DNA of 18,202 bases from Lachnoclostridium sp. UBA7482 (GTDB lineage Bacteria > Bacillota > Clostridia > Lachnospirales > Lachnospiraceae): contig DLOO01000052.1 of assembly GCA_002479645.1 (NCBI GenBank), positions 1-18,202 of the forward strand, read 5' to 3'. Made by a program: the position numbers and the translations under genes. The notes under the pieces were generated by a model that worked only from the letters and a program-made list of their open reading frames with translations, ran no database searches and was not told where the DNA came from. Of the stretch, positions 3,873 to 18,202 are shown piece by piece (the stretch's first letter is position 1; each line of letters opens with the position of its first letter).

Positions 3873-3913
3873 GATCGTCAAAAAATTTTCAGTATAGTTT
3901 AACGGAGATAAGA

Positions 3914-4366
3914 ATGGTTTTTGAAGTCTTAAGTAATGATAACGTTGATGAATACATTGATTATTTGAAAATTGCAATGAGTGAAGAACCGGACATGATG
4001 ACCGCAGATAAGGTTGACGAAGATGGAATAAAAAGCAGAGTCTCCGACCCTTTTTTCAGCAAAACTACATCTATTCTTGCCAAAATGGACGGGAAAATTG
4101 TAGGGCGTATCGAGTATCACTTTTACGGCTGCATGCAGGACGGCTACAGAATGGCATACGTTGATTGGGTTTATGTTTTGAAATCGCACAGACATCAGGG
4201 AATCGCTCAAGGACTTTTTGAGGCGTTTGAAAAGGACTGTGAAAAAAATAAAATCAACCAATATTACTTAATACGCGCTCAAAATGACGATGCTAATCGC
4301 TTTTATAACCATTTTGCCGACGTTGAGCTGGCGGAAAGCCCAACACTGAGGAAGTTCCTTCGGTAA
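3914..4366 (+). CDS. GNAT-family N-acetyltransferase
   Basis: A 150-residue acetyl-CoA-dependent acetyltransferase. The acetyl-CoA pyrophosphate-binding motif A is visible as a beta strand (MAYVDWVYVLKSH) followed by RHQGIAQGL, matching the Q/R-x-x-G-x-G/A signature. The strand before it (GKIVGRIEYHFYG) and a C-terminal YYLIRAQNDDANRFYNH segment complete the GNAT fold. The substrate is not readable. ATG at 3914 is preferred because GGAG (3904-3907) sits six bases upstream and the family core starts there. An ATG at 3869 would add 15 residues and overlap the previous stop as ATGA, with a poorly spaced GAGGA. Low-GC composition and its place in the repeat-flanked insert suggest acquisition with its neighbour. 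No antitoxin-like partner is seen, so a GNAT toxin role is not supported. Confidence 0.88.
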   Translation: MVFEVLSNDNVDEYIDYLKIAMSEEPDMMTADKVDEDGIKSRVSDPFFSKTTSILAKMDGKIVGRIEYHFYGCMQDGYRMAYVDWVYVLKSHRHQGIAQGLFEAFEKDCEKNKINQYYLIRAQNDDANRFYNHFADVELAESPTLRKFLR

Positions 4367-4529: not shown

Positions 4530-6659
4530 TTATACGGTCATCGTGAACTTCGCAGGCGCTTTGCCTGTCAGCTCGATACTTCTTGCATCCGGCTGAGACG
4601 CGCCAATGTAAATTTCATAGGTTCCCGGTGCGAGAACACGCTTGCCGTCTTCGTTGTAAACACCGAAGGACTTGAAATCCAGTTCGATTTCCACGGTCTT
4701 TTCTTCGCCCGGAGCCAAAGCAACCTTCTTCAGACCCTTTAGCTGCGCATTCGGAGCTCCGGTCATCGGGGATTTCACATAAACCTGAACGGTCTCGGCG
4801 CCTGCCATCTTACCGGTATTGGCAACGGTCACCTTGCAGGTTACCTTGCTGTCCTCACCGATAGTACCTGCAACGTCTGCATCCCTCATGTCAAAGCTTG
4901 TATAGCTCAGACCGTATCCAAACGGATACAATGCCGGTTTCTCCATGTAACGATAGGTTCTGCCCTTCATTGCATAATCAGTAAATGCAGGAAGCTCCTC
5001 GCTGGTCTCATAGAAGGTTACCGGAAGCTTGCCCTCCGGATTTGCCTCACCAAAGAGAATCTGTGCGATTGCACGGCCGCCCTGTGCACCCGGATACCAG
5101 CCCTGAAGGATTGCGGGCAAATGCTCCTGCTCCCACTTCACTGCCAATGCGCTGCCGGACAGAAGCACGAGAATGACCGGCTTGCCGCTCTCATAGAGCG
5201 CCTTGATAATATCTTCCTGGATACCCGGAAGCTTCAGATTCGGCTTATCGCCGGATGCGAATTCGTTACCTTCATCGCCTTCCTCGCCCTCAAGTCCCGG
5301 ATCAAGACCAAAAACGGCAATGACAACGTCACTCATATCTGCGATTGCCTTTGCCTCCGCAGTACGGTCATACGGCTGTCCTAAGCCCTGCACACGATTC
5401 TTGAACAAATGGCAGCCCTCAGAGTAGTAAATTCTCTTATCATCGCCGACATACTCACGAATACCCTCCAGTACGGTAACATACTCGGAAGAGGTTCCTT
5501 CATAGTTACCTACCAGCGCCTTACGGCTGTCCGCATTGGGTCCGATAACACCGATGGTCTGAATCTTATTAATATCCAGAGGCAGCGTCTGATTCTCATT
5601 CTTAAGGAGACAGATGGTCTTCTTTGCCACCTTCAGATTGAGTTCCCTCTGCGCCTTGCCGTCGCACTGATCATAGTCGATAGCATCATAAGCAACTTTT
5701 CCTTCTTCCTCGAAAAGGCCGAGCTTCATACGCGTAGTCAGAAGTCTGGTTACCGCGCGGTCAATCGTACTCTCCTCAACCAGGCCTTCCTTTACCGCCT
5801 GAAGCAAGTGTACGTACATATTTCCACAGTTCAGGTCACACCCCTTGTTCATGGCAAGCGCCACGGACTCAACCTGATTCTTTGTTACCATGTGGAATTC
5901 ATGGAAATCCTTGATTGCCCAGCAGTCAGATGTCACATGACCGTCAAAGCCCCAAAGATCGCGCAAAATATCTGCCAATAAAAGCTGGCTGCCGCAGCAG
6001 GGCTCATCATTGGTACGGTTATAAGCTCCCATAACTGCCTCTACGCCGCCCTCATGAACGCAGGCTTCAAAAGCGGGGAGATACGTCTCCCAAAGATCCT
6101 GCTTGCTGACTACCGCATTGAAGCTGTGACGCAAATCCTCCGGACCGCTATGTACGGCAAAGTGCTTTGCACATGCCGCAACCTTCATATAATTCTCGTC
6201 CTTACCCTGCAGCCCCTCAATAAAACGAACCCCCAAACGTCCGCTGAGATATGGGTCCTCGCCGTAGGTTTCATGACCACGGCCCCAACGGGGGTCACGG
6301 AAGATATTTACATTGGGAGACCAGAAGGTCAATCCCTTGTAAATGTCATGATCTCCGTACTTCTGCTGCATGTTAAACTTTGCTCTGCCCTCCGTTGATA
6401 TGGTATCGGCAACTTCCTCCATCATATCCTCGTCAAATGCTGCCGCCAGGCCGATTGCCTGGGGGAATACGGTTGCCACACCTGCCCGCGCAATACCGTG
6501 CAGCGCTTCATTCCAATAATTGTAGGATTTAATTCCCAGACGCTCAATCGCCGGCGCATTGTAGAGAGTCTGAAACACCTTCTCCTCCAATGTCATCCGG
6601 GAAACAAGCTCTGCCGCCCGCTCCTTATAGTTTTCTACCTTCTGTGCCGAAATACTCAT
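4530..6659 (-). CDS. GH3 beta-xylosidase/beta-glucosidase, cytoplasmic
   Basis: A 709-residue glycoside hydrolase family 3 enzyme that removes non-reducing-end beta-linked sugars with retention. The N-terminal barrel has MTLEEKVFQ, YNYWNEALHGIAR and ATVFPQAIGLAAAFD, typical of the beta-xylosidase branch. The nucleophile is Asp245 in HVTSDCWAI, and NKGCDLNCGNMY follows. The second domain carries GLEGEE (Glu457-Glu460), where I expect the acid/base Glu, and the GWYPGAQGG and EGKLPVTF motifs. A fibronectin-III-like domain (AGAETVQVYVKSP) ends the protein. There is no signal peptide, so it acts inside the cell on imported oligosaccharides. ATG at 6659 is chosen because GAGGA sits six bases upstream; an ATG at 6713 would add 18 unconserved residues. 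It follows solute-binding protein 2 but is separated by a strong terminator. Xylose versus glucose specificity is not decided. Confidence 0.93.
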   Translation of the reverse strand: MSISAQKVENYKERAAELVSRMTLEEKVFQTLYNAPAIERLGIKSYNYWNEALHGIARAGVATVFPQAIGLAAAFDEDMMEEVADTISTEGRAKFNMQQKYGDHDIYKGLTFWSPNVNIFRDPRWGRGHETYGEDPYLSGRLGVRFIEGLQGKDENYMKVAACAKHFAVHSGPEDLRHSFNAVVSKQDLWETYLPAFEACVHEGGVEAVMGAYNRTNDEPCCGSQLLLADILRDLWGFDGHVTSDCWAIKDFHEFHMVTKNQVESVALAMNKGCDLNCGNMYVHLLQAVKEGLVEESTIDRAVTRLLTTRMKLGLFEEEGKVAYDAIDYDQCDGKAQRELNLKVAKKTICLLKNENQTLPLDINKIQTIGVIGPNADSRKALVGNYEGTSSEYVTVLEGIREYVGDDKRIYYSEGCHLFKNRVQGLGQPYDRTAEAKAIADMSDVVIAVFGLDPGLEGEEGDEGNEFASGDKPNLKLPGIQEDIIKALYESGKPVILVLLSGSALAVKWEQEHLPAILQGWYPGAQGGRAIAQILFGEANPEGKLPVTFYETSEELPAFTDYAMKGRTYRYMEKPALYPFGYGLSYTSFDMRDADVAGTIGEDSKVTCKVTVANTGKMAGAETVQVYVKSPMTGAPNAQLKGLKKVALAPGEEKTVEIELDFKSFGVYNEDGKRVLAPGTYEIYIGASQPDARSIELTGKAPAKFTMTV

Positions 6660-6725
6660 ATTATGTCCTCGCTTCTGCGCCATGGGGCGCATCTCATGCT
6701 TTTTCCCGTCCAAACAAACGTAAAT

Positions 6726-6763: not shown

Positions 6764-6796
6764 AAAAACGGGGGGATTTCCGCTGGAAATCCCCCC
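6764..6796 (-). terminator. Strong terminator after solute-binding protein 2
   Basis: A perfect 12-bp stem, GGGGGGATTTCC (6770-6781) with GGAAATCCCCCC (6785-6796), has a three-base loop. On the minus strand it is followed directly by GTTTTT (6769-6764). It should end most transcripts of the transporter operon before the GH3 gene. Confidence 0.92.
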
Positions 6797-6831
6797 GACA
6801 GACTCATTCAATAACTATATGTAACTAAAAA

Positions 6832-8250
6832 TTAGTGCTTAGCATTGAAATCATCACACATGGTCTGCCACTGGCTGCCATATGCCTCAAGCTGCTCAGC
6901 AGGAGTAGCTACCAAAGCATCCACATCATACAACCAGTCATTTACATAGTCAGGAAGAAGAATGGTACATCTCATGGCCTGAGGAAGCTTGTTGATCATG
7001 AGGTCGATCGTCTCGTTTACTGCTCTCTGATCAGTAAATACAGTCTCGTACTGACCCTTCCACCTAGAATCATCATCTTCATAGCCGGGTGCATCCGTGG
7101 TATATACATTGTATGCGTAAGCTATGTCAGCGATGTGCTGCTTATCATAGCAGGAAGGAATGATCCAGATGTTCTCACGAACGACAGAGATAAGCTCGCC
7201 GTCGCTGGAAGGTCCATAAGGGATGCATACGAAACCGGACTTGAAGTCGAACTTAGCAATGGTACCTGCACAGTACTCTTCGCAGACACGCATACAGGTC
7301 TTCTGCTCCTGATAAGCTGCCTCGAACCAGTTCCAAGCAACGTCCTCTCCTTCAGGTCTGGGCATTACAAGACCCTCTTCGTAAAGAGAAACACCCCAGT
7401 TAAGAGCCTCAAGTACAGCCGGATCGTCAAGGTTCGTGGAAAGAACACCCTTGGTATTTACGATAACGTCAGTTCCGTTAGCAACAAGGAGAGCCGGGAA
7501 GAAGTCGCAGCTGAAGGAAGCGATCGGATAAACATCCTGTACGCCGTCACTGTTGGTATCGCCTGCGTTCTTAATCTTTTTGCAGAGCTCCTTGAAGTTT
7601 TCCCAGTTCCACTTTCCTTCAGCCTGAAGGTTGTAAGGAAGATCCTTGTCAATACCAAGGGTCTCAAAAAGATCCCTGTTAAAGAATACACCACTTCTGG
7701 GCTCGGTGGAACTTGCAAAACCGTAAACAGCATTACCAACGGTCATAACCTCAAGAACAGTCTTGTTCCACTTGTCATCAGTGAAGTCAAACTCTTCGAG
7801 GTTGGATACATCTGCGAACAGACCCTTATCAAGCAAGGAAGCAATCCATCCACTATCAAGAGCGATGATATCACCGACGGGCTCGCCGTTAGTAATCGAA
7901 AGCATAGCGGTCTGCTGAACGCTGCCCCAGTCATAAGGCGTGCTGCCAACGATTTTGTAGTTGTGGTCTTTCATCATCTTGTCCTGGTATGCCCAGTAAT
8001 CCTCAAGATACTGAGTATCCTCTTTTCTCCAGCTATCGTTGGACCACCAGTCAGTAACAGTGATCGTCTGACCTTTCAGATCTCTGTCATCAGCAGGGGT
8101 AGGGGTTGCCGACGGCTTATCTTCCCCGGAAGTAGGGGTCGGCGCTTTGGTAGGATCTTTCTCGTTCTCTTTATCATCGCCACATCCCACAAGCGCGAAA
8201 ATAAATGTAAGAACGACTACCAAAAGCAATAACTTTTTCAAGTTTTTCAT
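6832..8250 (-). CDS. Sugar ABC transporter solute-binding lipoprotein (transporter 2)
   Basis: A 472-residue family 1-type extracellular binding protein that delivers a carbohydrate to the permease pair encoded just upstream. A lipoprotein signal peptide ends in the lipobox LVGC with Cys23 as the lipidated residue. A Thr/Pro/Asp-rich linker (about 30-55) then spaces the domain from the membrane. The mature domain starts near QTITVTDWWSND. Residues 231-239 read DTNSDGVQD, an EF-hand-like calcium loop. ATG at 8250 follows AAGGAGG by nine bases, the best ribosome site in the operon. The gene lies 67 bases after the MalG-type permease gene, the largest gap in the operon, and is the last gene before the terminator. 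The substrate is not readable from the sequence; carbohydrate is inferred from the neighbours and the GH3 gene. Confidence 0.92.
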   Translation of the reverse strand: MKNLKKLLLLVVVLTFIFALVGCGDDKENEKDPTKAPTPTSGEDKPSATPTPADDRDLKGQTITVTDWWSNDSWRKEDTQYLEDYWAYQDKMMKDHNYKIVGSTPYDWGSVQQTAMLSITNGEPVGDIIALDSGWIASLLDKGLFADVSNLEEFDFTDDKWNKTVLEVMTVGNAVYGFASSTEPRSGVFFNRDLFETLGIDKDLPYNLQAEGKWNWENFKELCKKIKNAGDTNSDGVQDVYPIASFSCDFFPALLVANGTDVIVNTKGVLSTNLDDPAVLEALNWGVSLYEEGLVMPRPEGEDVAWNWFEAAYQEQKTCMRVCEEYCAGTIAKFDFKSGFVCIPYGPSSDGELISVVRENIWIIPSCYDKQHIADIAYAYNVYTTDAPGYEDDDSRWKGQYETVFTDQRAVNETIDLMINKLPQAMRCTILLPDYVNDWLYDVDALVATPAEQLEAYGSQWQTMCDDFNAKH

Positions 8251-8281
8251 TGTATAGTACCTCCTTAAAATATTCTTAAAC

Positions 8282-8332
8282 CTGACGTTGTCAGATTTAA
8301 TTCGTTGTTAATCGGTATCAGCCCTTGATACC
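8282..8332 (-). other. Two small inverted repeats between the permease and binding-protein genes
   Basis: CTGAC-GTT-GTCAG (8282-8294) and GGTATCA-gccct-TGATACC (8314-8332) are short perfect stems. The second overlaps the permease stop codon. Neither has a T tract. They sit at the only wide gap of the operon, where stem-loops may protect or process mRNA so that the binding protein is made in excess. Confidence 0.35.
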
Positions 8333-9343
8333 TGTCTGAGATAAGCTCTCAACAAAGTTCTTCTGCGCCAAAACGTAAATAAGGATCAACGGTATCAAAG
8401 ACATCAAAACTGCGGTTGAGAGAACCTGCTGACCATATGCGCTTGCAATCTGGTAGCTCTGTCCGTAGATTGACTTGTAGTAACCATCCAGACGATCCAC
8501 CAAAGAACTGAGCCGGTTTGTAACCAGTATCCAGCCATAAGCGTTTGAGAAAAATATCTGTGAATAATATACATCTGTCCACTGCCATACGAAAGAAAAC
8601 AGGAAACAGGATGTAAGAATCGGGGTAGCGCCCGGAAGGAGAATCTGTACGAAGGTACGCATTCTGCTGCAGCCGTCTACATAGGCTGCTTCTTCCAATT
8701 CCTTAGGCTCATTACGAAAATGCTGTCTGAGCAGGTAGATATACAAACCGCTCTTAAATCCGGCACATCCGAGACACATCAGGATGTAAGGAGTCATACC
8801 GCCAAGCAGCTTCACACCCTTCCCGCCATGGAACAATCCTATTATACCAAAGATATCGAAATCTGTGAAGTACAAATATAACGGAGTGATAATTGTCTGC
8901 GGCGGAACGACAATCAGCAGAATAACACAGGCAAACCAGAAGTTCTTCAGCGGGAACTTAAATCTGGCAAAACCATAGCCTACCAGCGTACAGGAGACAA
9001 TCTGCGCAACGGCAACCAGGAAGGATACATAGAAGGAAGTCCAGAAAGTCTTTGCCCCCTCTAACATCTTCCATGCCATACTGTAGGCGCTTACCGAAAA
9101 GTGTCTCGGCACACTGATTACCGTACTGTCATAAAGGTCAATCTCCTCCATGAAGCTTACAGAAACCTTATTCAGCAGCGGCTGTAAAATCAGGAAGCAC
9201 AAACCGAATACCAATACTGCGCGGCATACGCAGAAGATGAATCTTGCGATTTTCTTTTTCAGCAAATACCCATCGGATTTACGGTTCCTTTCCCAGAAGA
9301 ATTCCCAGCGTTCTTTTCTTGTCATTGCATTCGTCTTAGTCAT
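8318..9343 (-). CDS. Carbohydrate ABC transporter permease, MalG type (transporter 2)
   Basis: A 341-residue integral membrane protein, one half of the translocation channel. Six membrane segments are expected; hydrophobic stretches are visible at about 35-55, 105-125, 135-160, then around the EAA loop and near the C terminus (STAVLMSLIPLILIYVLAQ). The EAA loop that docks the ATPase reads EEAAYVDGCSRM with the conserved Glu at 218. The C terminus SQTGIKG is typical for MalG-type subunits. The N terminus before the first membrane segment is longer than usual (about 35 charged residues). ATG at 9343 overlaps the end of the MalF-type gene by eight bases, so the two are translationally coupled, with AGAGGG of the upstream gene's last codons serving as ribosome site. 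Confidence 0.93.
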   Translation of the reverse strand: MTKTNAMTRKERWEFFWERNRKSDGYLLKKKIARFIFCVCRAVLVFGLCFLILQPLLNKVSVSFMEEIDLYDSTVISVPRHFSVSAYSMAWKMLEGAKTFWTSFYVSFLVAVAQIVSCTLVGYGFARFKFPLKNFWFACVILLIVVPPQTIITPLYLYFTDFDIFGIIGLFHGGKGVKLLGGMTPYILMCLGCAGFKSGLYIYLLRQHFRNEPKELEEAAYVDGCSRMRTFVQILLPGATPILTSCFLFSFVWQWTDVYYSQIFFSNAYGWILVTNRLSSLVDRLDGYYKSIYGQSYQIASAYGQQVLSTAVLMSLIPLILIYVLAQKNFVESLSQTGIKG

Positions 9344-10265
9344 AATAGTACACCCTCTTGGAAATAATAAGCGATACTATGCCGAGAATCGCCATAATGA
9401 TTACAAAGTATACCCAGGACATCGCCGAAGAACGACCGTAGTTGAAGTCCTTGAGGAGATTATCATTAATCATCTTCATGAACTCACTGTCAGACTTCGT
9501 AAAGAAATCGACAATGGTATAGATTACGTTTACCAGAATCAGGGAACTGATCATCGGGAAAGTAATCTTCCAGAAGCTCTCCCATGCGGTACAGCCCTCG
9601 ATGGTTGCTGCTTCGTACATACTCGGCGAAATCGTCTGCAAACCGGAAAGGAAGATGATTATCTGAATACCGGATGCAATAGCGATGTTATAAACCTCGT
9701 TTACCACCCTAATGATGGTTTCAAAGAAGCTGTTACCGGTTTCCCCCTGAAGCAGGATGCTTTCAAGAGTTGCCGTAATACTGGTTCCGTTATCACTGTC
9801 CTTTACAAGATCCTGCATGGAGGAAAGCAAAGCGTTGTTGGTCTCCAATCCGATCATAACACCGGAGGAAAGGATAACCGGGAGGAAGTATACCGCTCTT
9901 ACAAACGTTCTTCCCTTAAATTCCTGATTCAAAAGAATTGACATGAAGAAACTGAATACGAGAATAGACGGAACATAAAGCGCCATTTTCTCAAGCTCTT
10001 CAAGCAGCAGGCGTACATACTTCGGATCGGTTCTGAAAATATAACGGTAGTGAGTCAATCCGCTCCATACGAATTCAAAACCCTGACCGGATACCGGAGA
10101 TACCGTACAGAAGGACATGTACAGGGACTGTGCCAACGGATAAACCATAAACAACAGGAATCCGATGATAAAAGGGGAGATAAAAAGGTAACCGGCAATC
10201 GCATTACCTTTTGCAAGGTTTTTCTGCTTCTTCTTTTTTACTGCCTTTACAGCCTGTTCAGCCAT
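9336..10265 (-). CDS. Sugar ABC transporter permease, MalF type (transporter 2)
   Basis: A 309-residue membrane permease, partner of the MalG-type protein encoded next. A Lys-rich cytoplasmic start (about 1-20) leads into the first membrane segment (IAGYLFISPFIIGFLLFMVYP). The EAA loop reads YEAATIEGCTAWESF with Glu218. ATG at 10265 directly abuts the stop codon of the DUF5696 gene; the ribosome site GGAGGT is embedded in that gene's last codons (Gly-Gly-Asn). The tight junction means the DUF5696 protein and this transporter are made together. A periplasm-side insertion of about 60 residues between the third and fourth membrane segments (near 160-190) is longer than in the transporter 1 homologue. 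No ATPase gene is nearby. Confidence 0.93.
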   Translation of the reverse strand: MAEQAVKAVKKKKQKNLAKGNAIAGYLFISPFIIGFLLFMVYPLAQSLYMSFCTVSPVSGQGFEFVWSGLTHYRYIFRTDPKYVRLLLEELEKMALYVPSILVFSFFMSILLNQEFKGRTFVRAVYFLPVILSSGVMIGLETNNALLSSMQDLVKDSDNGTSITATLESILLQGETGNSFFETIIRVVNEVYNIAIASGIQIIIFLSGLQTISPSMYEAATIEGCTAWESFWKITFPMISSLILVNVIYTIVDFFTKSDSEFMKMINDNLLKDFNYGRSSAMSWVYFVIIMAILGIVSLIISKRVYYYD

Positions 10266-12818
10266 TTAGTTACCTCCTTTCACAACAAGCCAATCCTGTG
10301 CGGGAACAACCTGACCGCTCGGCAATTCGTAGGCTACGGTACGGTAGTTTACGTACACCTTGGTTCCGTCGCTGTATTCCGTAAGGGATACATTCTCTGC
10401 AACAACCTCGTGATTCTCAATGGTCGCCTTGTATGTATCGCCGAGTTCGCTCTTGAAACGGTTATAGTACTTAATTACGTCATCCTTCCAGCTGTCGAAG
10501 TTTGCGCCGTAGAACTTTGTGGACTCTGTATCCTGAAGCTCCTTGCTCTCTGCATCCATAAATACACAGTACATACCTGCGCCGGTCTCTACAGACTTGA
10601 GAAGGTTGGTAATGAAATCACCGGTAATATTGAGCGCATCGCCGGTATAATCCACATAACCGTGAAGTGCGATCTGGAAGAACGGAATCTGTCGGTCAAC
10701 AATATTGCTTCCCTGAGACTTGAGCGGCATGTTGATAATCATATCGGTGTATGGAAGCAGATAGGAATTCCCCTCGTAAATTACGCTGCGGTTTCCTGCC
10801 TCCTTCATAGCCTGAAGCTTATCCATGTGCATCTGCTTCACAGTCTGTCTGGTTACCGGACGCTTACGGTTGTAATCCGCCGCCAAAACATTGCCGATGG
10901 AATTAAACGCTACGTTCTTTGCACCGAGCTTCTCGATCTCCTTTATAAAGGAATCCAGAGTATCCATGGAGTACTTCGGATTAACAAGGTAGTGATACTC
11001 AGTGTTGTCATCTGTGGAATAGAAGATATTGCTGATATCCTTTGTCTTCGCAATTTCTCTGGTAACGTATTTAATCGCATCCGATCTGGAACTGAAGGAG
11101 TCAAACAAACGATTCTTATAAACAAACGTTACATCCGCCTTCAGATAAACGCTCTCGCAGTTGTCATTCAGGTAAGAAAGCATGTTCTTGAAATCCTTCT
11201 TGCCCCCGAGAACGGAAATCAAATCAACGTCGTCGGCAACCTCATGAACAGTGCCGCCGTTAAACCAACCATTCAGGATAACATCCATGTCGGTTACTCC
11301 GGCATCCTTCAATTCTTTGATGATATCCTGCATTTCCTTGTAGGTGGTAAGCGCATACGGTTTATCCTTCGGGAAACCGAGAATCTGCTGTGTCTTTGTA
11401 ATCGCGCCGACTAATTCAACCGCCATCGGCATGTTGCCGGTTACACCGCCCTTGAGTTCCGGCATCTGCTCAAAGAGATATTCGCGATATGCCTTTGCCA
11501 TATCTACATAGCTTGCGGAATCGAGCGTACGATAACGGATGCTGATTCCCTCGCCTTTGCCGAGCTTTTCTTCAAAGAGCTGAACACCGAGAGCGGACCG
11601 CTCGGACATATTGGCCTTCTCACTGTGTACGACAGAAAATCCTGCGGTTACATAGTTGTAATTGTGACGTCTTCCTGCTACGTCGGCCTCAACGTAACCA
11701 TAGGTATCTCCGTCCTCAACCATACAAATCATACCCTGATTGCGGTCGGTATAGGCAATTCCGAATACCGGGAAACGACACTCGGGGTCATTTACGACAA
11801 TATCACGAACAGCGCCGTAATCCCATCCGTAAATCTTTGCGCTGTACAGGGTCTGATTGTTCTTCCGGTTATTGAAGTTAATCAATGCGCCGGAACCGTC
11901 CGGAACGAACAGGTATCCTTCTTCGCTCTCGCCTGCCGAACAGAAATAAGGAACAACACGGCAGTCCGTAAGCGGATATTTGCTATAGTATTGAAGCTCT
12001 TCAAACGGAACACGAACAACCAAGTCTCTGCCATCCAGTGTGTAGTATACGGAAAGATTTACCGCAGGCTTATCTTCACTCTTCTCAACACCGTAGAGAG
12101 CCAAATCTGCTTCGTACTGCTCCTGGTCGTAACCGACCTCGGCAAAGTACTGTTCGGCAAGCTCCTTCTTCCATTCCTGTGTATTGTCACGAAGAATAAC
12201 GATATCATGCTCTTCAAGATCCGGATACAGCTTAAGCATCTTTTCCAGCTCGCCGTCACCCTTATCCTTCAGCTTGTCATAATTCAGCTGCTTATAGGAA
12301 CCCTTTATCTCCTTCTGCGCTTCCGGAGAAAGCTTATCAAATAATTCATTGTATCGCTCAGCCGGAACTGCCAGCGGAATAATGTAAACCTTTTCAATGT
12401 TACCAATGGTAAAGTCTACACGGATTGTCTTATCATCAACAACCTCGTAGCAGTAATTTCCTTTCTCCACGCTGCTCTTCCAGTTATCAAGCTGTGTGGA
12501 CACACCCTTTTTATCGGTATAGGTAATAACGACCGTAGATTGCAGCTCCTTATATACTGCATCGCTGCCCTGCGGGTTGGAATAATACTTGTTTCCTTCC
12601 TTATCGGTCAGGGTAAAATGCGCTGTCGTCGGATCAAATTCAAATGTCAGATATTCATTCTTGATTGTCTGAATATCTGTACTGAGGGAAGAATCAAAGC
12701 GATACGGCTTAATAGGTTCCTCCTCATCCGTGCTGCCAAGACCAAAATGAACGGCAAGCGCTGCCAGTGCACCAATCAAGCACACGGAAATCAGAGTAAT
12801 AATAATTTTACGTTTCAT
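10266..12818 (-). CDS. Membrane-anchored DUF5696 protein, possible glycoside-hydrolase-like
   Basis: An 850-residue protein with an N-terminal membrane anchor or uncleaved signal (about 4-27) and a large extracellular part. I recognise it as DUF5696 from its layout and its usual place among sugar ABC genes. Residues about 50-430 are beta-rich and begin NEYLTFEFDPTTAHFTL, like the mutarotase-type sandwich that precedes the barrel in some glycosidases. Around 435-760 the pattern is barrel-like: SYVDMAKAYREYL, then strand ends MDVILNGWFNGG (Trp518), KADVTF, IFYSTDD and NSIGNVLAADYNRKR (Asp648). The C terminus (about 790-850) is a beta domain with KVYVNYR and a final QDWLVVKGGN. No activity is known to me for the family. 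ATG at 12818 follows AGGAGGG. It abuts the MalF-type gene of transporter 2. A surface enzyme or binding platform for the transported glycan is inferred. Confidence 0.85.
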   Translation of the reverse strand: MKRKIIITLISVCLIGALAALAVHFGLGSTDEEEPIKPYRFDSSLSTDIQTIKNEYLTFEFDPTTAHFTLTDKEGNKYYSNPQGSDAVYKELQSTVVITYTDKKGVSTQLDNWKSSVEKGNYCYEVVDDKTIRVDFTIGNIEKVYIIPLAVPAERYNELFDKLSPEAQKEIKGSYKQLNYDKLKDKGDGELEKMLKLYPDLEEHDIVILRDNTQEWKKELAEQYFAEVGYDQEQYEADLALYGVEKSEDKPAVNLSVYYTLDGRDLVVRVPFEELQYYSKYPLTDCRVVPYFCSAGESEEGYLFVPDGSGALINFNNRKNNQTLYSAKIYGWDYGAVRDIVVNDPECRFPVFGIAYTDRNQGMICMVEDGDTYGYVEADVAGRRHNYNYVTAGFSVVHSEKANMSERSALGVQLFEEKLGKGEGISIRYRTLDSASYVDMAKAYREYLFEQMPELKGGVTGNMPMAVELVGAITKTQQILGFPKDKPYALTTYKEMQDIIKELKDAGVTDMDVILNGWFNGGTVHEVADDVDLISVLGGKKDFKNMLSYLNDNCESVYLKADVTFVYKNRLFDSFSSRSDAIKYVTREIAKTKDISNIFYSTDDNTEYHYLVNPKYSMDTLDSFIKEIEKLGAKNVAFNSIGNVLAADYNRKRPVTRQTVKQMHMDKLQAMKEAGNRSVIYEGNSYLLPYTDMIINMPLKSQGSNIVDRQIPFFQIALHGYVDYTGDALNITGDFITNLLKSVETGAGMYCVFMDAESKELQDTESTKFYGANFDSWKDDVIKYYNRFKSELGDTYKATIENHEVVAENVSLTEYSDGTKVYVNYRTVAYELPSGQVVPAQDWLVVKGGN

Positions 12819-12835
12819 TTTTTATCCCTCCTGTG

Positions 12836-13510
12836 CTAGAATCGGAAACTGATTTCCTTAAATAAGGAAACAAAATATGCAAATGCGTCGCTGACCAAAC
12901 TGAAGAACAGCAGCACGATGAAAATGATAATTGCCATACCCGCAACAGACAGAAGGGAGGAAATAATACCCTTGGCAAAACCATAATCATGTACCATCAT
13001 CATTCCTGCCAGAATCAGCATTACGCACCAAATCAAGGCAAATACATTGAAGTAGGTGTAGAAAACACCCTCTTCATAGGTAATGATGTTACTGATGAAA
13101 ATCATCGGGAAAGCAATAATTACATAAGGAGTAAATGCATATGCAGTTGCAATGTAAATGTCCTTCAGCTTTCCTTTACCATCCATCAAGGTGGTAAGGC
13201 TCCAGTTCGCGGTAACCCAGATTACAAGGGGTACCAGCACGCCGAGAATAACCATCAGGATGTTTACCCGCTCCCAGCGGGTATTGTTAAACATAAAGCT
13301 TGCGAAACGCATATCCCACAGATTGGTAAGCAATGCCGCAATAACAATCGTGTTTGCTGCTGCAAGGGAACCTCTCTTTTCATGGCTGAGATCCCAGAAG
13401 CCGTCAAACGGGTGCAGGATTACATACAGGGAATAACGGAGTGTTTTCCAGTAATTTGCCATCTTTTCACCGCGCCAAAAACGAAGGATTTTTGAGAATA
13501 GGTTTTTCAT
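12836..13510 (-). CDS. YIP1-family integral membrane protein
   Basis: A 224-residue protein with about five membrane segments (near 50-70, 83-103, 118-140, 150-175 and 185-212). The N terminus has WKTLRYSLYVILHPFDGFWDL, a shape typical of bacterial YIP1-domain proteins, and a Trp-Asp-rich amphipathic region ahead of the first segment. The molecular role of bacterial YIP1 proteins is not established. Its ATG overlaps the stop of the NHL/TPR gene as ATGA, with AAGGAG inside that gene's last codons, so translation is coupled. Seventeen bases separate it from the DUF5696 gene. The consistent neighbours suggest that it helps place or assemble the two large surface proteins or the transporters; this is inference. 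Confidence 0.85.
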   Translation of the reverse strand: MKNLFSKILRFWRGEKMANYWKTLRYSLYVILHPFDGFWDLSHEKRGSLAAANTIVIAALLTNLWDMRFASFMFNNTRWERVNILMVILGVLVPLVIWVTANWSLTTLMDGKGKLKDIYIATAYAFTPYVIIAFPMIFISNIITYEEGVFYTYFNVFALIWCVMLILAGMMMVHDYGFAKGIISSLLSVAGMAIIIFIVLLFFSLVSDAFAYFVSLFKEISFRF

Positions 13511-15438
13511 GCTTCTCTAATCTCCTTTCGCAGTTTTTTCACTCTACGAACTACCTTCGGAACAATAATCAGTACGGCAAGAATTGCAAGTGCATAACCG
13601 ATGTACTGTTCTACGACTTCCTCACGATAGTGACGGAATGCCTTGGAGTAGTTCACCTCATCTCTTGCTACCTTGAAGTAGCCCATTGCTTCTTTGTACT
13701 GGTTGTTACGAAGAAGTGCACGGCCGATACCGACATACGCAAGCTCGTTATTACCGTTGAACTTCAGAACCTCTTTCCAGGTGTCTGCGGAATCGTCATA
13801 CTTACCAACCTTGTACTCGTCAAGCGCCTTGTTAATGAGGCGTCCGTAGTTTGTCATGGAAAATTCGGTTATACCGCCGCTTCGCTGGTCAAGAACAAGG
13901 ATGGTTTCCTCATCGGGGTTATCCATTGCTGCCGGAAATACGAAGCGTCCGCTGAGCATACCAACATTACCAAATGCATAAAGCATGTTGCCCTGGAAAT
14001 CGTATACGAAGATACGTCCGCGCATACGGTCAAGACATGCATACGTGTCATTGTTAAATGCAATTACATCGATAAATCTGGATGCACCGGAAATTTCATT
14101 CGCGGTTCCCCATGTCAGGTCGCCGATCGGATAAGCATTACCGTTACGAACCAGGATATCGGAACCCATGGAATTGAGCTTACGAACCGGTGTTGCGGTT
14201 CCCGCCCAGATGTCATCATCATCCAGAGTATGGGTCGTTACATATATGAAGCCCTTGGAGTCAAGACTCAGGTTATTATACTCGGTAGGAACGAACTGTA
14301 CGGTACGGTTCTTCTGTTCCTGAGTCTGAATCTTACGCCAAATCTTCTCAACAATGTTGGCCTCAACCTTGTTTGCGCCGACATAGCTGGTGAAATCACC
14401 GCTCTTGTCAAACTCCATCAAACCGGAGTTGATACCGGTTGCCTGAACATACAGACGGAAAGCTGTATCAACAACAAGCTTGCCGGGAAGGAATTCATAC
14501 TTTTCACTCAAAGTATCATCCTTCGGATTCGCAATAACGCCGATCACATTCATGTTGTAATCGCAGTGAAGAACCCGATTGTTCTTATAGTCTGCGATAT
14601 AGAAATCATAGTCAAGGTTCAGATCCTGACCGATGACATTTTCTTTGTACTCAATCGGTGCGCTGTCCTCGGAGCCTTCTCCATTACCATCGGAGCCTTC
14701 GCCGTCAGCGCCTTCACCTTCACCGTCGGAGCCTTCGCCGTCGCCATCGGAGCCTTCTCCGTCACCGTCGGAACCTTCACCGTCGGAGCCTTCGTCCGTA
14801 TCTTCCTCAGAGCTGCTGCCTACAGACTCGTCTGCCCCCCCCTCAGGAACTTCGTCTCCGTTCTCCTCGGGTGCCTCGTCTCCATTTTCCTCGGGAGTCT
14901 CGTCTCCGTTCTCCCCGGGAGTCCCTTCTTCGTTCCCCTCACCGGGCTCTTCCTCCTTTTCAGGAAGCTGAACCTCATAAGGATCGCCTATATAATCCGT
15001 ACCGAATGCTTCCTCACGCTGTTCCGCGGTCATCGGCATTACGAAAATATCCATCGGGTTATTGAGTGTCAGTGTGATATTTCCCTTAACCTGAAGCGCA
15101 TCCACCATGTTTTTGGAAACATTCACGCTGTAGATAATACGTACAAATTCGTAAGCGCCGTCCTTGCGAATAAATTCCACAATACGGTTATTGCCGGTAT
15201 CGCATACAAATACGCTGTCGCCCACGCAGAAAAGTCCCTGCGGGTCCTTGAAGTTTCCGACCTCTTCCCAGTCCGCACCGAACAGGGTGTTCGTTACGGA
15301 ATAAGCATCGGGAGACTCAACTTCTTCTTTCCAGAAGTTGTAGGAATATGTATACCAGTCACTTGCGGCTGCCATCTGAAGTGTAGAAACCAGCAGGCAC
15401 GCAAGAAGTAAGAATACAACGATTCGTTTTGCTCTCAT
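13507..15438 (-). CDS. Secreted NHL beta-propeller/TPR protein with a C-terminal membrane anchor
   Basis: A 643-residue protein with a signal peptide (about 1-25, ending QMAAA). The first NHL blade is at 64-90 (FKDPQGLFCVGDSVFVCD, then TGNNRIVEF). After it comes an insert of about 100 residues (roughly 160-260) made of acidic repeats. Further blades follow (DFYIADYKNNRVLHCD, FRLYVQATG, GFIYVTTH, TILVLDQRSGGITEF). About 525-600 are TPR-like helices (GKYDDSADTWKEVLKFN, NNQYKEAMGYFKVARDE). A membrane segment at 609-630 and a basic tail (RRVKKLRKEIREA) anchor it, so propeller and TPRs face outward. Such modules bind ligands or proteins; no catalytic motif is seen. ATG follows AGGAGGG. It lies 12 bases after the MalG-type gene of transporter 1 and overlaps the YIP1 gene. 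A scaffold or glycan-sensing role is inferred. Confidence 0.88.
   Translation of the reverse strand: MRAKRIVVFLLLACLLVSTLQMAAASDWYTYSYNFWKEEVESPDAYSVTNTLFGADWEEVGNFKDPQGLFCVGDSVFVCDTGNNRIVEFIRKDGAYEFVRIIYSVNVSKNMVDALQVKGNITLTLNNPMDIFVMPMTAEQREEAFGTDYIGDPYEVQLPEKEEEPGEGNEEGTPGENGDETPEENGDEAPEENGDEVPEGGADESVGSSSEEDTDEGSDGEGSDGDGEGSDGDGEGSDGEGEGADGEGSDGNGEGSEDSAPIEYKENVIGQDLNLDYDFYIADYKNNRVLHCDYNMNVIGVIANPKDDTLSEKYEFLPGKLVVDTAFRLYVQATGINSGLMEFDKSGDFTSYVGANKVEANIVEKIWRKIQTQEQKNRTVQFVPTEYNNLSLDSKGFIYVTTHTLDDDDIWAGTATPVRKLNSMGSDILVRNGNAYPIGDLTWGTANEISGASRFIDVIAFNNDTYACLDRMRGRIFVYDFQGNMLYAFGNVGMLSGRFVFPAAMDNPDEETILVLDQRSGGITEFSMTNYGRLINKALDEYKVGKYDDSADTWKEVLKFNGNNELAYVGIGRALLRNNQYKEAMGYFKVARDEVNYSKAFRHYREEVVEQYIGYALAILAVLIIVPKVVRRVKKLRKEIREA
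14667..14800 (-). repeat. About six 21-bp tandem repeats (acidic Gly-Ser-Asp block)
   Basis: Imperfect 21-base units encode seven-residue repeats of the type EGSDGDG, with one shortened unit. They make up residues about 213-258 of the NHL/TPR protein. Near-identity at the DNA level makes the array prone to length change by slippage. The Asp/Gly pattern could bind calcium, but it lacks the RTX nonapeptide. Confidence 0.85.
14853..14924 (-). repeat. Three 24-bp tandem repeats (PEENGDE block)
   Basis: 14853-14876, 14877-14900 and 14901-14924 are similar 24-base units encoding eight-residue repeats such as TPEENGDE and APEENGDE. A degenerate fourth unit may follow toward 14948. This is a second, different array in the same protein insert, directly next to the 21-bp array. 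Confidence 0.85.
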
Positions 15439-15450
15439 GTTTCTGCCCTC

Positions 15451-16317
15451 CTACTCTTTAATACCGGAACTTGCCATGGTTTCTACGATGTTGCTCTGTG
15501 CAAGCAGGAAGCTTACGAGCGGAACAATCATAATAAATACCGTAGCCGCCGCACTGACGCCGGTTCGTGCAACACCGCCTGCTGCAAGAGTCTTCAATGC
15601 GAACGGCAGTGTCTTCTTCTCTTCCGAGTAAATGTAGGTCGTCGCTACGTTGTTCCACAAGTTCTGGATAGAGAAAATCATAAGTGTCAGAGTAGCCGGT
15701 TTTACAAGCGGCATTACAATACGGAAGAAGATGGTGCCTTCTTTTGCACCGTCAATCTTCGCTGCCTCAATCAAAACGTCCGGAATACTGGATTCCATGA
15801 ACTGCTTCATAAGGAACAAGCCCATCGGCATTGCAAACGCCGGAACGATAATTGCAAGATAGGTATCTACCCAGTGCAGCTTCGCCATAATCAGATAGTT
15901 CGGAATCGCAAGAACGTATCCGGAGAACATCAGGGCTACCGTTACCATGGTGAAGAATGCTCTTCCGCCCGGGAACTTATACTTGGAAAGTACATAAGCT
16001 GCCATGGATGCAATAAAAATGTGTCCCACAGTACCTACAAAGGTAATGAACAGGGAGTTAAAGGAATAACGCGTAAAGGTTACGACGCCGGACTTGTTCA
16101 TGAGAAGGAACAAATCGTTGAAGTTTGCTATGGTCGGGTTCTTTACGAACAAATGCGGCGGGAATACGAACAACTCATTCAAAGGCTTAAATGCGTTGTT
16201 GATTGCAAATACGAGCGGGAATGCGAAGAAGCATCCGAACAGTACGAGGAAAATTCCTACGCCAATGTCACCGCCGACGGAACGATTCGGTTGTCTACCA
16301 GCTTTAATTTTTTTCAT
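15451..16317 (-). CDS. Carbohydrate ABC transporter permease, MalG type (transporter 1)
   Basis: A 288-residue membrane permease of usual MalG size. The first membrane segment is near 18-38 (IFLVLFGCFFAFPLVFAINN) and an extracellular region includes FPPHLFVKNPTIANF, the typical xPxxxxxNPTxxNF stretch. The EAA loop reads IEAAKIDGAKEGTIFF with the key Glu at 184. The C terminus is SSGIKE, as expected. ATG at 16317 follows GGGGGAG by about five bases. Fifteen bases separate it from the MalF-type gene and twelve from the NHL/TPR gene, so it is part of one transcript. It pairs with the MalF-type protein and solute-binding protein 1 to form the first importer. Confidence 0.94.
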   Translation of the reverse strand: MKKIKAGRQPNRSVGGDIGVGIFLVLFGCFFAFPLVFAINNAFKPLNELFVFPPHLFVKNPTIANFNDLFLLMNKSGVVTFTRYSFNSLFITFVGTVGHIFIASMAAYVLSKYKFPGGRAFFTMVTVALMFSGYVLAIPNYLIMAKLHWVDTYLAIIVPAFAMPMGLFLMKQFMESSIPDVLIEAAKIDGAKEGTIFFRIVMPLVKPATLTLMIFSIQNLWNNVATTYIYSEEKKTLPFALKTLAAGGVARTGVSAAATVFIMIVPLVSFLLAQSNIVETMASSGIKE

Positions 16318-16332
16318 GATATCTCCCCCTCA

Positions 16333-17265
16333 TCAAGTTCCGATTCTGCTGAGCGCCTTCTGAATGAACTTGTTGCACAAGAACATAGTCAGGAAAAGCA
16401 CCGTTGCAATTGCCGAAGCATAACCCATTTCAAAACGGTAGGAGCCGTAGTCAATCAGGTGGGTTACTACGGTACGGGCTGCATAGTCCGTACTCGGGAA
16501 GCCGCACAGGGACATGGTAACGTCAGCCGTGTTGAAAGTCTGGGTAATTGCCATAACCGCACCGAACATCAACATGGATTTCATGTTCGGAAGAGTGATA
16601 TACCAAAGCTCCTGCCAACGGTTTTTGATACCGTCTACATAGCCGGCCTCGTACTGGTCGGTAGGAATCGTATTCAGACCTGCTACAAAGGAAAGGAAGC
16701 CGGTACCGAGGGACATCCACAAGGTAACCAACAAAACAATTCCCATCATATACTCCGGATTAGTCAGCCAAAGTATCGGGGTATCAATCAGTCCCAGCTC
16801 CGTTAGCCACGCATTTGCATAACCGAGGGAGTCGCCGGAGAAGATCAGCGCCCACATTACATATACCTGACCGGAAATGGTCGGTGCATAGAAGACAAGC
16901 ACTGCGAAAGCACGGATGCCTCTCGGAAGCTCATGAATGAGCCAAGCGAAGAGGAACGCCATGATATACCCAATCGGTCCGGTAATCGCTGCAATCAGGA
17001 ACGTGTTCTTAATTGCGGTAAGGAATACGTCGTCCGCAAGAATCAGGTTGATGTAGTTTGTAAGCCCATGGAACTTCGGGGGCTGCAATACGTTGTAATA
17101 TGTAAAACTCAAATAAATGGAAACAATTACCGGGATTACATAAAACGTAAAGAAAATGATTGCATAGGGAGCCAGGAAACCATAACAGGTTTTGCTCTGT
17201 TTGATATCCTTGAGAAGAAAATGTCTCTGGCGCTTCTTTGCCGCTTTCCAGTTTGCATAACTCAT
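16333..17265 (-). CDS. Sugar ABC transporter permease, MalF type (transporter 1)
   Basis: A 310-residue membrane permease. The cytoplasmic N terminus is basic (KAAKKRQRHFLLKDIK), then a membrane segment follows from about 30 (YGFLAPYAIIFFTFYVIPV). The EAA loop reads YEAGYVDGIKNRWQELW with Glu206. A FHGLTNYINLI segment in the first outer loop is the normal FxGLxNYxxL motif. ATG at 17265 follows GGGGGGAG by about eight bases. Sixteen bases separate it from the stop of the solute-binding protein 1 gene. It differs in sequence from the transporter 2 MalF protein well beyond a recent duplication, so the two importers probably have different substrates or were combined from different sources. Confidence 0.94.
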   Translation of the reverse strand: MSYANWKAAKKRQRHFLLKDIKQSKTCYGFLAPYAIIFFTFYVIPVIVSIYLSFTYYNVLQPPKFHGLTNYINLILADDVFLTAIKNTFLIAAITGPIGYIMAFLFAWLIHELPRGIRAFAVLVFYAPTISGQVYVMWALIFSGDSLGYANAWLTELGLIDTPILWLTNPEYMMGIVLLVTLWMSLGTGFLSFVAGLNTIPTDQYEAGYVDGIKNRWQELWYITLPNMKSMLMFGAVMAITQTFNTADVTMSLCGFPSTDYAARTVVTHLIDYGSYRFEMGYASAIATVLFLTMFLCNKFIQKALSRIGT

Positions 17266-17281
17266 AACTCTTCTCCCCCCT

Positions 17282-18202
17282 TTACTTCACTTTGGAAGTG
17301 AGTCCGAATTCGGCTCTCTTCTTTGCAATTTCATCATTTATGTCACGGTTGTAATCGAGAAGTGTTTCTCTCGGGTCTTCGTTCGCATTGATTACCTTAC
17401 GAATGGCATTTACGATATGTCTGGAGGTGTAGTAACCGCCGGGAACTTCCGGAGTACCGACTACCCACTCCCACTGTTCTTCCAGAACGGCACGCTCGGA
17501 AGTACTCCAGGACAACTGATCAAATGCTTTTACATTGGCGGTTGCATATCTTGCAGACTCACCCATAACCGCCTCAAGTTCACGGCCGTAACGAGCCTGA
17601 ACATCAGCGCTTGCCCACCACTGGAGGAAGGTCCACGCTGCATCCTTGTGCTTGGAGGTTCCGAGAAGCATGGAGCAGGTTCCCCAACAGGATACGCTTC
17701 GGTCGATATCCCACTTGCCGTCGCCGTCCTTATCAACCCTGTTGCCATTCTCGTCGAGAATGTAGTTGCCGGGAATCGGCGCCATTTTCCAGAGGCCGCG
17801 AATCTCGGGAGCAGATACCACCAGGGTGTTGTAGTTGTTGTAATCGACGAAACCGAGCGGCATCTCACCGGTACGGAAACGGTCGATAAAGTTGTAGTCC
17901 TTAGGACACTTATAATGTGTAAAGAACATGGTAAAACGCTCAAATGCTTTTACTGCCTCTTCGCTGTCAAGCAGGGTTGCAGAGCCTTCTTCGTTGTAAA
18001 GGGAAGCTCCCATCTGATAGTACTGTGCGAAGAAACCGGACATATCCGGGTTGGATACGTTGTTAATCTTACGTTCTGTCGAAGGAATACCAATGCTCAT
18101 GTTGGACTTCTGAATCGTCGGAAGAATCGCAATGAGGTCATCCCATGTCTGAGGAATCTCAATTCCAAGTTCTTCAAAGATATCGGTACGATAGAACATT
18201 AC
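17282..18202 (-). CDS. Sugar ABC transporter solute-binding protein, C-terminal part (transporter 1)
   Basis: The last 306 or so codons of a family 1-type solute-binding protein; the 5' end and signal peptide lie beyond base 18202. The visible part starts within the hinge-strand region (MFYRTDIFEELGIEIPQTWDDL), which in full-length relatives lies around the first third, so the ATG at 18199 is internal and not a start. Typical later features are GEMPLGFVDYNNYNTLV, the SWGT-like CWGTCSMLL strand and AAWTFLQWWAS. Residues coded by 17734-17708 read DKDGDGKWD, an EF-hand-like loop. It ends 16 bases before the MalF-type permease gene and heads the operon as far as visible. The carbohydrate class is expected from the family and neighbours; the ligand is unknown. 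Confidence 0.92.
   Translation of the reverse strand, partial: VMFYRTDIFEELGIEIPQTWDDLIAILPTIQKSNMSIGIPSTERKINNVSNPDMSGFFAQYYQMGASLYNEEGSATLLDSEEAVKAFERFTMFFTHYKCPKDYNFIDRFRTGEMPLGFVDYNNYNTLVVSAPEIRGLWKMAPIPGNYILDENGNRVDKDGDGKWDIDRSVSCWGTCSMLLGTSKHKDAAWTFLQWWASADVQARYGRELEAVMGESARYATANVKAFDQLSWSTSERAVLEEQWEWVVGTPEVPGGYYTSRHIVNAIRKVINANEDPRETLLDYNRDINDEIAKKRAEFGLTSKVK

What the first reader, a model, noticed from the sequence alone, without database searches (positions are those of the whole stretch)
7000..18202. Two complete sugar importers encoded around an NHL/TPR, YIP1 and DUF5696 surface module
One minus-strand transcription unit encodes binding protein 1 with its MalF/MalG pair, then three non-transporter proteins, then a second MalF/MalG pair and binding protein 2. 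The three middle genes are coupled to both sides (ATGA overlap, 12-17 base gaps, zero-base junction to the second MalF gene). Two of them are large extracellular anchored proteins with no assigned activity. The arrangement suggests one surface machine for glycan capture or processing that feeds two related importers, rather than two unrelated transporters. I recall similar gene sets in other Firmicutes, so the cluster may be conserved, but its function is, to my knowledge, not described.
Basis: partly seen in the sequence, partly recalled or inferred. Interest (0 to 1): 0.72.

Follow-up and report, generated by a model that had tools for sequence, protein, structure and literature searches.

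The report
Conserved two-importer hemicellulose uptake operon
A nine-gene bacterial operon, kept in much the same order in many Firmicutes and spirochaetes, joins two sugar importers to three membrane-anchored proteins of unknown role, and probably builds one surface machine for capturing and importing pieces of plant hemicellulose.

Summary
In 59 of 80 public loci the nine genes stand in the window's order; 18 of the other 21 are cut by contig ends. DUF5696, NHL/TPR and a giant SBP1 occur together in the same 37 of 398 phylum genomes; four further genomes have SBP1 or NHL without DUF5696. Corrections and additions: (1) "binding protein 1" is cut by the window edge; it is a 992-aa anchored protein with CBM35-like sequence before its binding domain (relatives 932-1092 aa, 67 of 67). 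(2) NHL/TPR and YIP1 are one fused protein in 21 of 38 further loci. (3) DUF5696 has the fold of GH129/GH101 glycosidases, but the known acid/base glutamate is not conserved. (4) The inner unit always neighbours importer-2 permease genes; importer 1 can move or be absent beside it. Linked genes suggest xylan here and mannan for a second copy in this genome. No function was tested; I found no description in the papers searched. Best reading: a surface capture-and-uptake complex.

The parts
17282..18202 (-). SBP1, C-terminal 306 aa of a 992-aa protein that runs past the window (contig C12:17282-20260): N-terminal membrane anchor, CBM35-like N-terminal half (inferred as two domains), helical linker, solute-binding domain
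   Evidence: full frame; relatives 932-1092 aa in 67 of 67; CBM_35 matched at E <= 0.01 by 16 of 30 relatives, best 2.8e-8
16333..17265 (-). F1, CUT1-type permease (MalF position) of importer 1
   Evidence: BPD_transp_1 41.2 bits; EAA-like loop in 69 of 69 relatives
15451..16317 (-). G1, CUT1-type permease (MalG position) of importer 1
   Evidence: BPD_transp_1 52 bits; EAA loop in 72 of 72 relatives
13507..15438 (-). NHL/TPR protein: signal peptide, extracellular NHL propeller with an acidic low-complexity insert, TPR-like helices, C-terminal transmembrane helix with basic tail
   Evidence: AlphaFold pLDDT 80.7; Foldseek best matches are NHL propellers; TM-like segments at 6 and 612; C-terminal TM in 72 of 73 relatives
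12836..13510 (-). YIP1-family integral membrane protein, fused to the NHL/TPR protein in many relatives
   Evidence: Yip1 48.4 bits; fused in 21 of 38 loci and in L140, L141
10266..12818 (-). DUF5696 protein: N-terminal membrane anchor, beta-sandwich, GH129/GH101-like barrel, C-terminal beta domain; general acid of GH129 not conserved
9336..10265 (-). F2, permease (MalF position) of importer 2
   Evidence: BPD_transp_1 33.4 bits; EAA-like loop in 77 of 79 relatives
8318..9343 (-). G2, permease (MalG position) of importer 2
   Evidence: BPD_transp_1 57.2 bits; EAA loop in 74 of 76 relatives
8276..8300 (-). A/T-rich hairpin in the 67-base G2-SBP2 gap, possibly an RNA-processing or attenuation site
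   Evidence: G2-SBP2 is the loosest junction of the core, median 130 bases in 69 loci
6832..8250 (-). SBP2, solute-binding protein with a lipobox-like LVGC (probable lipoprotein) of importer 2
   Evidence: SBP_bac_1 50.1 bits; sequence; lipobox-like motif in 41 of 70 relatives
6769..6797 (-). intrinsic terminator-like hairpin with T run between SBP2 and GH3
   Evidence: 13-pair stem with 9 G-C pairs
4530..6713 (-). GH3 glycosidase, beta-xylosidase-like, probably its own transcription unit
   Evidence: GH3 N, C and Fn3-like domains; best NCBIfam Xyl3A 838.8 bits, under its cut-off of 1250

Best explanation
The operon encodes one surface capture-and-uptake complex for decorated hemicellulose oligosaccharides (xylan for this copy). 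Shown by the calls: gene order, domain make-up, predicted folds of two proteins, NHL-YIP1 fusions, co-occurrence, linked xylan or mannan genes. Inferred: NHL/TPR and YIP1 form a membrane scaffold (propeller and TPR outside, YIP1 helices in the membrane) beside the F2-G2 permease. DUF5696, anchored by its N-terminal helix, keeps a GH129-like sugar pocket that works as a binding or orienting device rather than as an ordinary glycosidase. The giant SBP1 reaches into the wall, grips glycan through its CBM35-like part and hands chains to F1-G1. The lipoprotein SBP2 feeds F2-G2. The ATPase is probably the cell's shared CUT1 one (not searched for). A divergent AraC-type regulator probably controls the set, and enzymes such as the GH3 xylosidase finish the work.
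For: Full nine-gene order in 59 of 80 loci; NHL-YIP-DUF-F2 unbroken in the 78 that are not cut just before DUF5696. DUF5696, NHL and giant SBP1 in the same 37 of 398 genomes; strong DUF5696, NHL, YIP1 and SBP1 matches in the same 25 of 61 relatives. NHL-YIP1 fused in 21 of 38 loci, at least 4 changes of state on the DUF5696 tree. GH129-like fold at high confidence without conserved general acid. CBM35-like sequence in SBP1. Xylan-type enzyme clusters in 41 of 75 loci with flanks, GH5/GH130 in 11 (one representative per cluster was identified). Second copy in the same genome beside GH26-CBM35, GH130 x2, epimerase, PMM and PMI. AraC-type gene upstream at C12:20716-21600. EAA loops in all four permeases.
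Against: No complex, binding or transport was tested. Importer 1 is absent beside the inner unit in 8 of 38 loci, and in 4 of 11 genomes near-full DUF5696 copies outnumber SBP1 copies, so not every unit can own an importer 1. Conversely G308 and G357 have a near-full SBP1 and no DUF5696 match, and G443 has an NHL fragment without DUF5696. 23 of 75 loci have none of the labelled enzyme or regulator clusters in the fetched flank (one of them is this genome's second copy, whose mannan genes lie beyond that stretch). A Paenibacillus copy sits among flavin oxidoreductase genes instead of glycosidases. L065 and L072 lack a recognisable SBP2 despite about 8 kb of room. Asp is kept at the GH129 nucleophile column in 85 of 140 sequences and Asp648 in 125 of 140, so some members may be enzymes.
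Confidence: 0.5

Rival explanations
1. DUF5696 is an active extracellular exo-acting alpha-glycosidase with a changed catalytic pair. It trims side groups at the membrane and the two importers take up the debranched chain and the released sugar.
For: Its closest solved relatives are enzymes. Asp648 is kept in 125 of 140 sequences, Arg657 and Asn730 in 140 of 140, Glu744 in 135, the kind of pocket an enzyme keeps. In DagB the published catalytic candidates are Asp486, Glu517, Glu531 and Asp202 of the second monomer, and only Asp435 of the NagBb pair is kept (PMC5698469, passages), so this fold tolerates a moved general acid.
Against: The NagBb Glu478 column is acidic in 21 of 140 sequences and Tyr in the window; DagB Glu517 seems to fall on the same column, but in a marginal stretch of the alignment. 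The NagBb nucleophile column is Ser in the window. The same protein serves xylan-type, mannan-type and other loci, unusual for a specific exo-enzyme.
Confidence: 0.25
2. Two independent importers for products of the same polymer that are merely co-regulated; the three inner proteins serve importer 2 alone, for example as its assembly or gating factor.
For: F2 and/or G2 follow DUF5696 in every locus, whereas SBP1 with its permeases is downstream in 5 and absent in 8 of 38. Importers are only 22-24% identical. Near-full DUF5696 copies outnumber SBP1 in 4 of 11 genomes.
Against: Each of the 37 phylum genomes with strong DUF5696 also has giant SBP1 (one of them, G307, cut at a contig start), and G1-NHL is tight (median 9 bases in 74 loci), more than loose co-regulation needs.
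Confidence: 0.3
3. NHL/TPR, YIP1 and DUF5696 form a surface sensor that reports glycan to the cell rather than a transport part.
For: Propeller, TPR and an altered enzyme pocket would suit ligand sensing; the AraC-type cluster is in the flank of 28 of 82 loci.
Against: No kinase, cyclase or DNA-binding domain matched in the three proteins; the tightest partner is a permease pair, not a regulator.
Confidence: 0.08

Closest known systems
CUT1-family ABC importers of Gram-positive polysaccharide loci
   Same: MalF/MalG-type permeases with EAA loops, solute-binding proteins, AraC-type regulator and linked glycosidases.
   Different: Two unlike importers in one operon, an SBP of about 1000 aa with CBM35-like sequence and a membrane anchor, and three conserved non-transporter membrane proteins between them.
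GH129 (NagBb) and the GH129-like DagB, with GH101
   Different: Membrane-anchored and longer (850 against about 600-660 modelled residues), with a helical stretch near residues 150-245; known general acid not conserved; encoded with importers.
SusC/SusD systems of Bacteroidetes
   Same: Idea of a surface glycan-binding protein held over a transporter (recalled).
   Different: No SusC or SusD domain among the 14 window proteins scanned; transporter is of ABC type.
Pfam DUF5696, Yip1 and NHL families
   Same: Window proteins pass the curated cut-offs.
   Different: These are names without an assigned role in this setting; no paper in the library holds the word DUF5696.

Membership tests
CUT1 ABC importer (both importers) | permease pair with BPD_transp_1 domain and EAA loop | tested here: met
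CUT1 ABC importer (both importers) | solute-binding protein encoded with the permeases | tested here: met
CUT1 ABC importer (both importers) | ATP-binding subunit | not tested
   no ATPase domain among the window proteins scanned; a UgpC-annotated ATPase gene precedes SBP1 in the Paenibacillus copy; the rest of this genome was not searched for one
Gram-positive polysaccharide utilization locus | transporter, transcription regulator and glycoside hydrolases side by side | tested here: met
   importers and GH3 in the window; AraC-type gene beyond its edge
GH129 / GH101-like glycosidase (DUF5696 protein) | fold: beta-sandwich, GH barrel, C-terminal beta domain | tested here: met
GH129 / GH101-like glycosidase (DUF5696 protein) | general acid/base glutamate (NagBb Glu478) | tested here: not met
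   aligned residue is Tyr681; acid in 6 of 92 and 21 of 140 sequences; by profile alignment, not by superposed coordinates. The number Glu478 is recalled and fits the aligned sequence
GH129 / GH101-like glycosidase (DUF5696 protein) | catalytic aspartate (NagBb Asp435, DagB Asp486) | tested here: inconclusive
   column 640 is Ser here, Asp in 47 of 92 and 85 of 140; Asp648 nearby is nearly invariant and could be the DagB Asp486 equivalent; Asp435/Asp486 from PMC5698469 (passages)
GH129 / GH101-like glycosidase (DUF5696 protein) | hydrolase activity | not testable with these tools
   no assay
Carbohydrate-binding module family 35 (SBP1 N-terminal part) | profile match over Pfam cut-off | tested here: inconclusive
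   16 of 30 relatives match at E <= 0.01; of the 7 relatives whose tables were shown, one is over the cut-off (L140, 34.5 bits, cut-off 28), one below it and five without a match; the full protein of this genome was not scanned
GH3 beta-xylosidase Xyl3A (NF041776) | score over the curated cut-off | tested here: not met
   838.8 bits against 1250; GH3 domains themselves are clear
SusC/SusD system | SusD-like lipoprotein and TonB-dependent channel | tested here: not met
   no such Pfam match among 14 window proteins scanned

The most novel reading that the evidence does not exclude
A Gram-positive counterpart of the SusCD idea: one membrane supercomplex in which an NHL/TPR-YIP1 scaffold holds a catalytically altered GH129-fold protein over a CUT1 permease, and a CBM-carrying giant binding protein delivers long decorated glycans to a second permease, so that glycan chains are gripped, oriented and threaded at the cell surface. 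The unit is adapted to new glycans by duplication (a xylan-linked and a mannan-linked copy in this genome, 8-13 near-full DUF5696 copies in four others).
Probability: 0.3. Interest if true: 0.85.

Novelty: new variant of a known kind. Interest (0 to 1): 0.62.

Why it matters
How Gram-positive gut and rumen bacteria hold on to long hemicellulose chains and pass them to ABC importers is, to my knowledge, less well understood than SusCD. Here is a gene set found in Clostridia, Bacilli (Paenibacillus) and Treponema with largely fixed order. It contains a glycosidase-fold protein that seems to lack the known general acid, and has no described function in the papers I searched. It is testable in cultured hosts (Butyrivibrio fibrisolvens D1; Lachnotalea glycerini DSM 28816; Paenibacillus cellulosilyticus), and it would give roles to DUF5696, to a bacterial YIP1 family and to the giant binding proteins now annotated only as 'extracellular solute-binding protein'.

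Tried and rejected
Idea that one inner unit serves many SBP1 importers (note): rejected. Counting near-full matches only (at least 560 of 612 positions for DUF5696, 780 of 970 for SBP1; partial matches, several at contig ends, left out) in 11 genomes, DUF5696/SBP1 copies are equal in 7 (G245 6/6, G305 3/3, G440 1/1, G588 1/1, G537 4/4, G475 1/1, G531 3/3) and DUF5696 is ahead in 4 (G267 10/4, G286 13/7, G339 9/4, G368 8/4).

First claim that the catalytic pair of DUF5696 is simply lost: weakened. The NagBb-based alignment puts Ser at the nucleophile, but DagB Asp486 could correspond to the nearly invariant Asp648; I had no coordinates to superpose. So I claim only that the known general acid is not conserved.

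Weak DUF5696 hits in five relatives (G026, G030, G035, G043, G055) were not counted: L031 is a NagBb-like GH129 protein and L032 is 61% identical to it; L033-L035 look like alpha-amylase-type proteins by my reading, with no search run. Weak NHL hits in six relatives (G027, G032, G040, G048, G052, G055; E 4.6e-9 or worse) were not counted. In one search, 9 of 46 matching genomes are weak (E above 1e-6) and were not counted. In one search, 8 of 48 are ordinary SBP-domain hits, G284 is half-length, and G308 and G357 have near-full SBP1 without DUF5696, their SBP1 running towards a contig end about 700 bases away, G443 has an NHL fragment without DUF5696.

SBP2 gave no match among solved structures. 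A Butyrivibrio xylan transcriptome paper (PMC6344614) has no occurrence of YIP1 or operon and its passages name no NHL or DUF5696 gene. The Thermoanaerobacter mannoside-phosphorylase cluster (PMC4264767, passages) has a different gene set. PMC8106489 (passages) gave background on GH129. Paper searches were seen as listings (titles and abstract starts); none shows a description of this cluster. The library lacks most subscription journals and preprints.

No formal control was run for enrichment of xylan enzymes; the comparison is only that the 22 genus genomes hold 1-7 GH10 matches each. Flank clusters are single-linkage and only one representative of each was identified. Yip1 missing in four loci was an ORF-picking error, repaired; L196 was therefore labelled 'split' in the tree although it is fused, and L140 and L141 were not in that tree. 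L196 is the sister of fused L156 there, so I expect the minimum of 4 to stand, but I did not rerun it. The SBP1 profile was empty because of a wrong length filter (mended), and the F1 loop patterns were too strict (mended).


Full report
What is in the window. The sequence lies on contig C12 of a 2.05-Mb, 87-contig assembly, 80% complete. The nearest listed public relatives are uncultured Lachnospiraceae (70 and 68% identity of the DUF5696 protein).

The first binding protein is not an ordinary one. The window holds only its C-terminal 306 residues. The whole reading frame has 992 residues (part of it reads N in the held copy). In all 67 public loci in which it was found it has 932-1092 residues. 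It begins with a hydrophobic anchor (62 of 67) and rarely has a lipobox-like motif (2 of 67). Relatives show SBP_bac_1 near residues 580-910, and 16 of 30 have CBM_35 matches at E <= 0.01, best 2.8e-8; in the two shown with coordinates these lie at residues 110-136 (L071, below the cut-off) and 312-360 (L140, over it). I infer two CBM35-like sandwiches plus a helical linker before the binding domain; no structure was predicted for this protein.

Is it an enzyme? In the hhalign alignment NagBb Asp435 falls on Ser640 and Glu478 on Tyr681 (Glu478 is a recalled number, while Asp435 and DagB Asp486, Glu517, Glu531 and Asp202 are in PMC5698469, passages seen). In 92 sequences column 640 is Asp in 47, column 681 is acidic in 6, both in 2. 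In 140 sequences, which include distant phylum members, the numbers are 85, 21 and 11. Arg657 and Asn730 are kept in 140 of 140, Asp333 in 136, Glu744 in 135, Asp648 in 125. The pocket region is thus conserved while the known general acid is not. I take it as probably a binding protein, with a changed enzyme as the main rival.

NHL/TPR and YIP1. The NHL/TPR model (pLDDT 80.7) shows a propeller whose best matches are NHL domains, TPR-like helices and a long C-terminal helix that a hydropathy scan marks as a membrane segment (72 of 73 relatives). YIP1 is an integral membrane protein (4 hydrophobic segments by a simple scale). In the window the genes overlap by 4 bases. In G033 and G053 the two matches lie in one reading frame. 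In 38 further loci (36 from 33 of the 37 phylum genomes with strong DUF5696, plus two plasmids) all 38 have NHL, YIP1 and DUF5696 together, and in 21 NHL and YIP1 are one protein, one of them (L201) cut by a contig end. On a DUF5696 tree of 59 rows the state needs at least 4 changes (one row was mislabelled, see Tried and rejected). Repeated fusion or fission suggests that the two proteins act as one unit.

Conservation. From 80 genome-contig loci, 59 have the nine genes in order. Of 21 others, 18 are cut by a contig end, L065 and L072 lack a recognisable SBP2, and L077 shows two G2 pieces. Among 61 relatives, strong DUF5696 and NHL matches, YIP1 and SBP1 occur in exactly the same 25 genomes of 4 genera; 22 of these belong to one genus, so these are not independent events. 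Among 398 phylum genomes DUF5696 is strong in 37 (20 genera by the handles' labels). NHL is found in those 37 and as a fragment in one more; giant SBP1 in those 37 and, near contig ends, in two more, plus one half-length match. Treponema loci share the order.

What belongs to what. F2 follows DUF5696 in all 80 loci, and F2 and/or G2 follow it in all 38 phylum and plasmid loci. SBP1 with permease genes stands upstream in 23 of these 38, downstream of G2 in 5, is absent within the fetched stretch in 8, and could not be judged in 2 cut by contig ends (counted from its listing; not every permease was labelled). The eight loci come from seven genomes, all of which carry giant SBP1 elsewhere. So the core is NHL-YIP1-DUF5696-F2-G2, with SBP1-F1-G1 as its usual partner.

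Substrate. In 82 loci (80 public and the two of this genome), flanking-gene clusters, each named from one representative scanned by Pfam, are: AraC-type regulator 28 loci, GH10 23, GH3 19, GH43 14, GH67 9, GH5 9, GDSL-type esterase 6, GH130 5, SASA-type esterase 4, GH43-CBM6 4, GH115 3. Of 75 loci with flanks, 41 have a xylan-type cluster, 11 GH5 or GH130, 3 both and 23 none of the labelled clusters. The second copy in this genome stands before GH26-CBM35, GH130, a 2-epimerase-GH130 fusion, a phosphomannomutase-type gene and mannose-6-phosphate isomerase: a mannan set. The window copy is next to a GH3 enzyme that resembles beta-xylosidase without reaching the curated cut-off, behind a strong terminator-like hairpin. 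The Paenibacillus cellulosilyticus plasmid copy is beside flavin oxidoreductases and a UgpC-annotated ATPase, so the machine is not tied to one polymer.

Transport competence. All four permeases keep EAA-like loops (69/69, 72/72, 77/79, 74/76), so both pairs should couple to an ATPase. F1/F2 and G1/G2 share 24 and 22% identity: two different CUT1 lines, not a recent duplication.

Reading. I judge most likely a membrane-anchored capture-and-uptake complex for hemicellulose fragments, with the NHL/TPR-YIP1 pair as scaffold, DUF5696 as glycosidase-derived binding part, and two importers with different binding proteins. The physical complex, the roles and the substrate are inferred. No paper in the searches I ran (seen as listings) shows such a system; the library is limited to open-licence papers.

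Noticed in passing
window 13507-15438 (-), residues about 165-265 of the NHL/TPR protein: Acidic Glu/Gly/Asp/Ser-rich low-complexity insert inside the propeller; complete frames in this genus run to about 602-658 aa against about 500 aa in the other unfused copies.
   Followed up: no
window 391-2346 (+): Glutamine-dependent NAD synthetase-like gene (CN_hydrolase and NAD_synthase domains), with no evident link to the operon.
   Followed up: no
window 2438-3157 (-): Signal peptidase I-like gene; a Peptidase_S26 cluster lies in the flank of 6 of 82 loci, downstream in 5.
   Followed up: no
window 3405-4366 (+): Two small overlapping genes, the second a GNAT acetyltransferase, the first without a Pfam match at E <= 0.01.
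   Followed up: no
L156, Paenibacillus cellulosilyticus plasmid NZ_CP054609.1: A copy of the operon with fused NHL-YIP1 among LLM flavin oxidoreductase and aldo/keto reductase genes, with a UgpC-annotated ATPase gene: a different catabolic setting.
   Followed up: partly
L234 (MT835587.1); MT835600.1: Two 'Bacteriophage sp.' records from human faeces encode DUF5696 proteins (99 and 88% of the query covered); the first is marked UNVERIFIED and is perhaps bacterial DNA, the second was not opened.
   Followed up: partly
L031 868-2751 (+), L032 772-2691 (-): NagBb-like GH129 proteins in two related genomes (L031: E 2.6e-253 to 5wzn; L032 61% identical to L031), separate from DUF5696.
   Followed up: yes
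L049, L093, L101, L107-L109, L115 downstream of the operon: HlyD-like and FtsX-like genes (clusters c4 and c8, 7 loci) follow the operon in several Lachnospiraceae and other Clostridia; meaning unknown.
   Followed up: no
G267, G286, G339, G368: Four genomes of the phylum sample carry 8-13 near-full DUF5696 copies in 2.2-3.0 Mb, an unusual expansion.
   Followed up: partly
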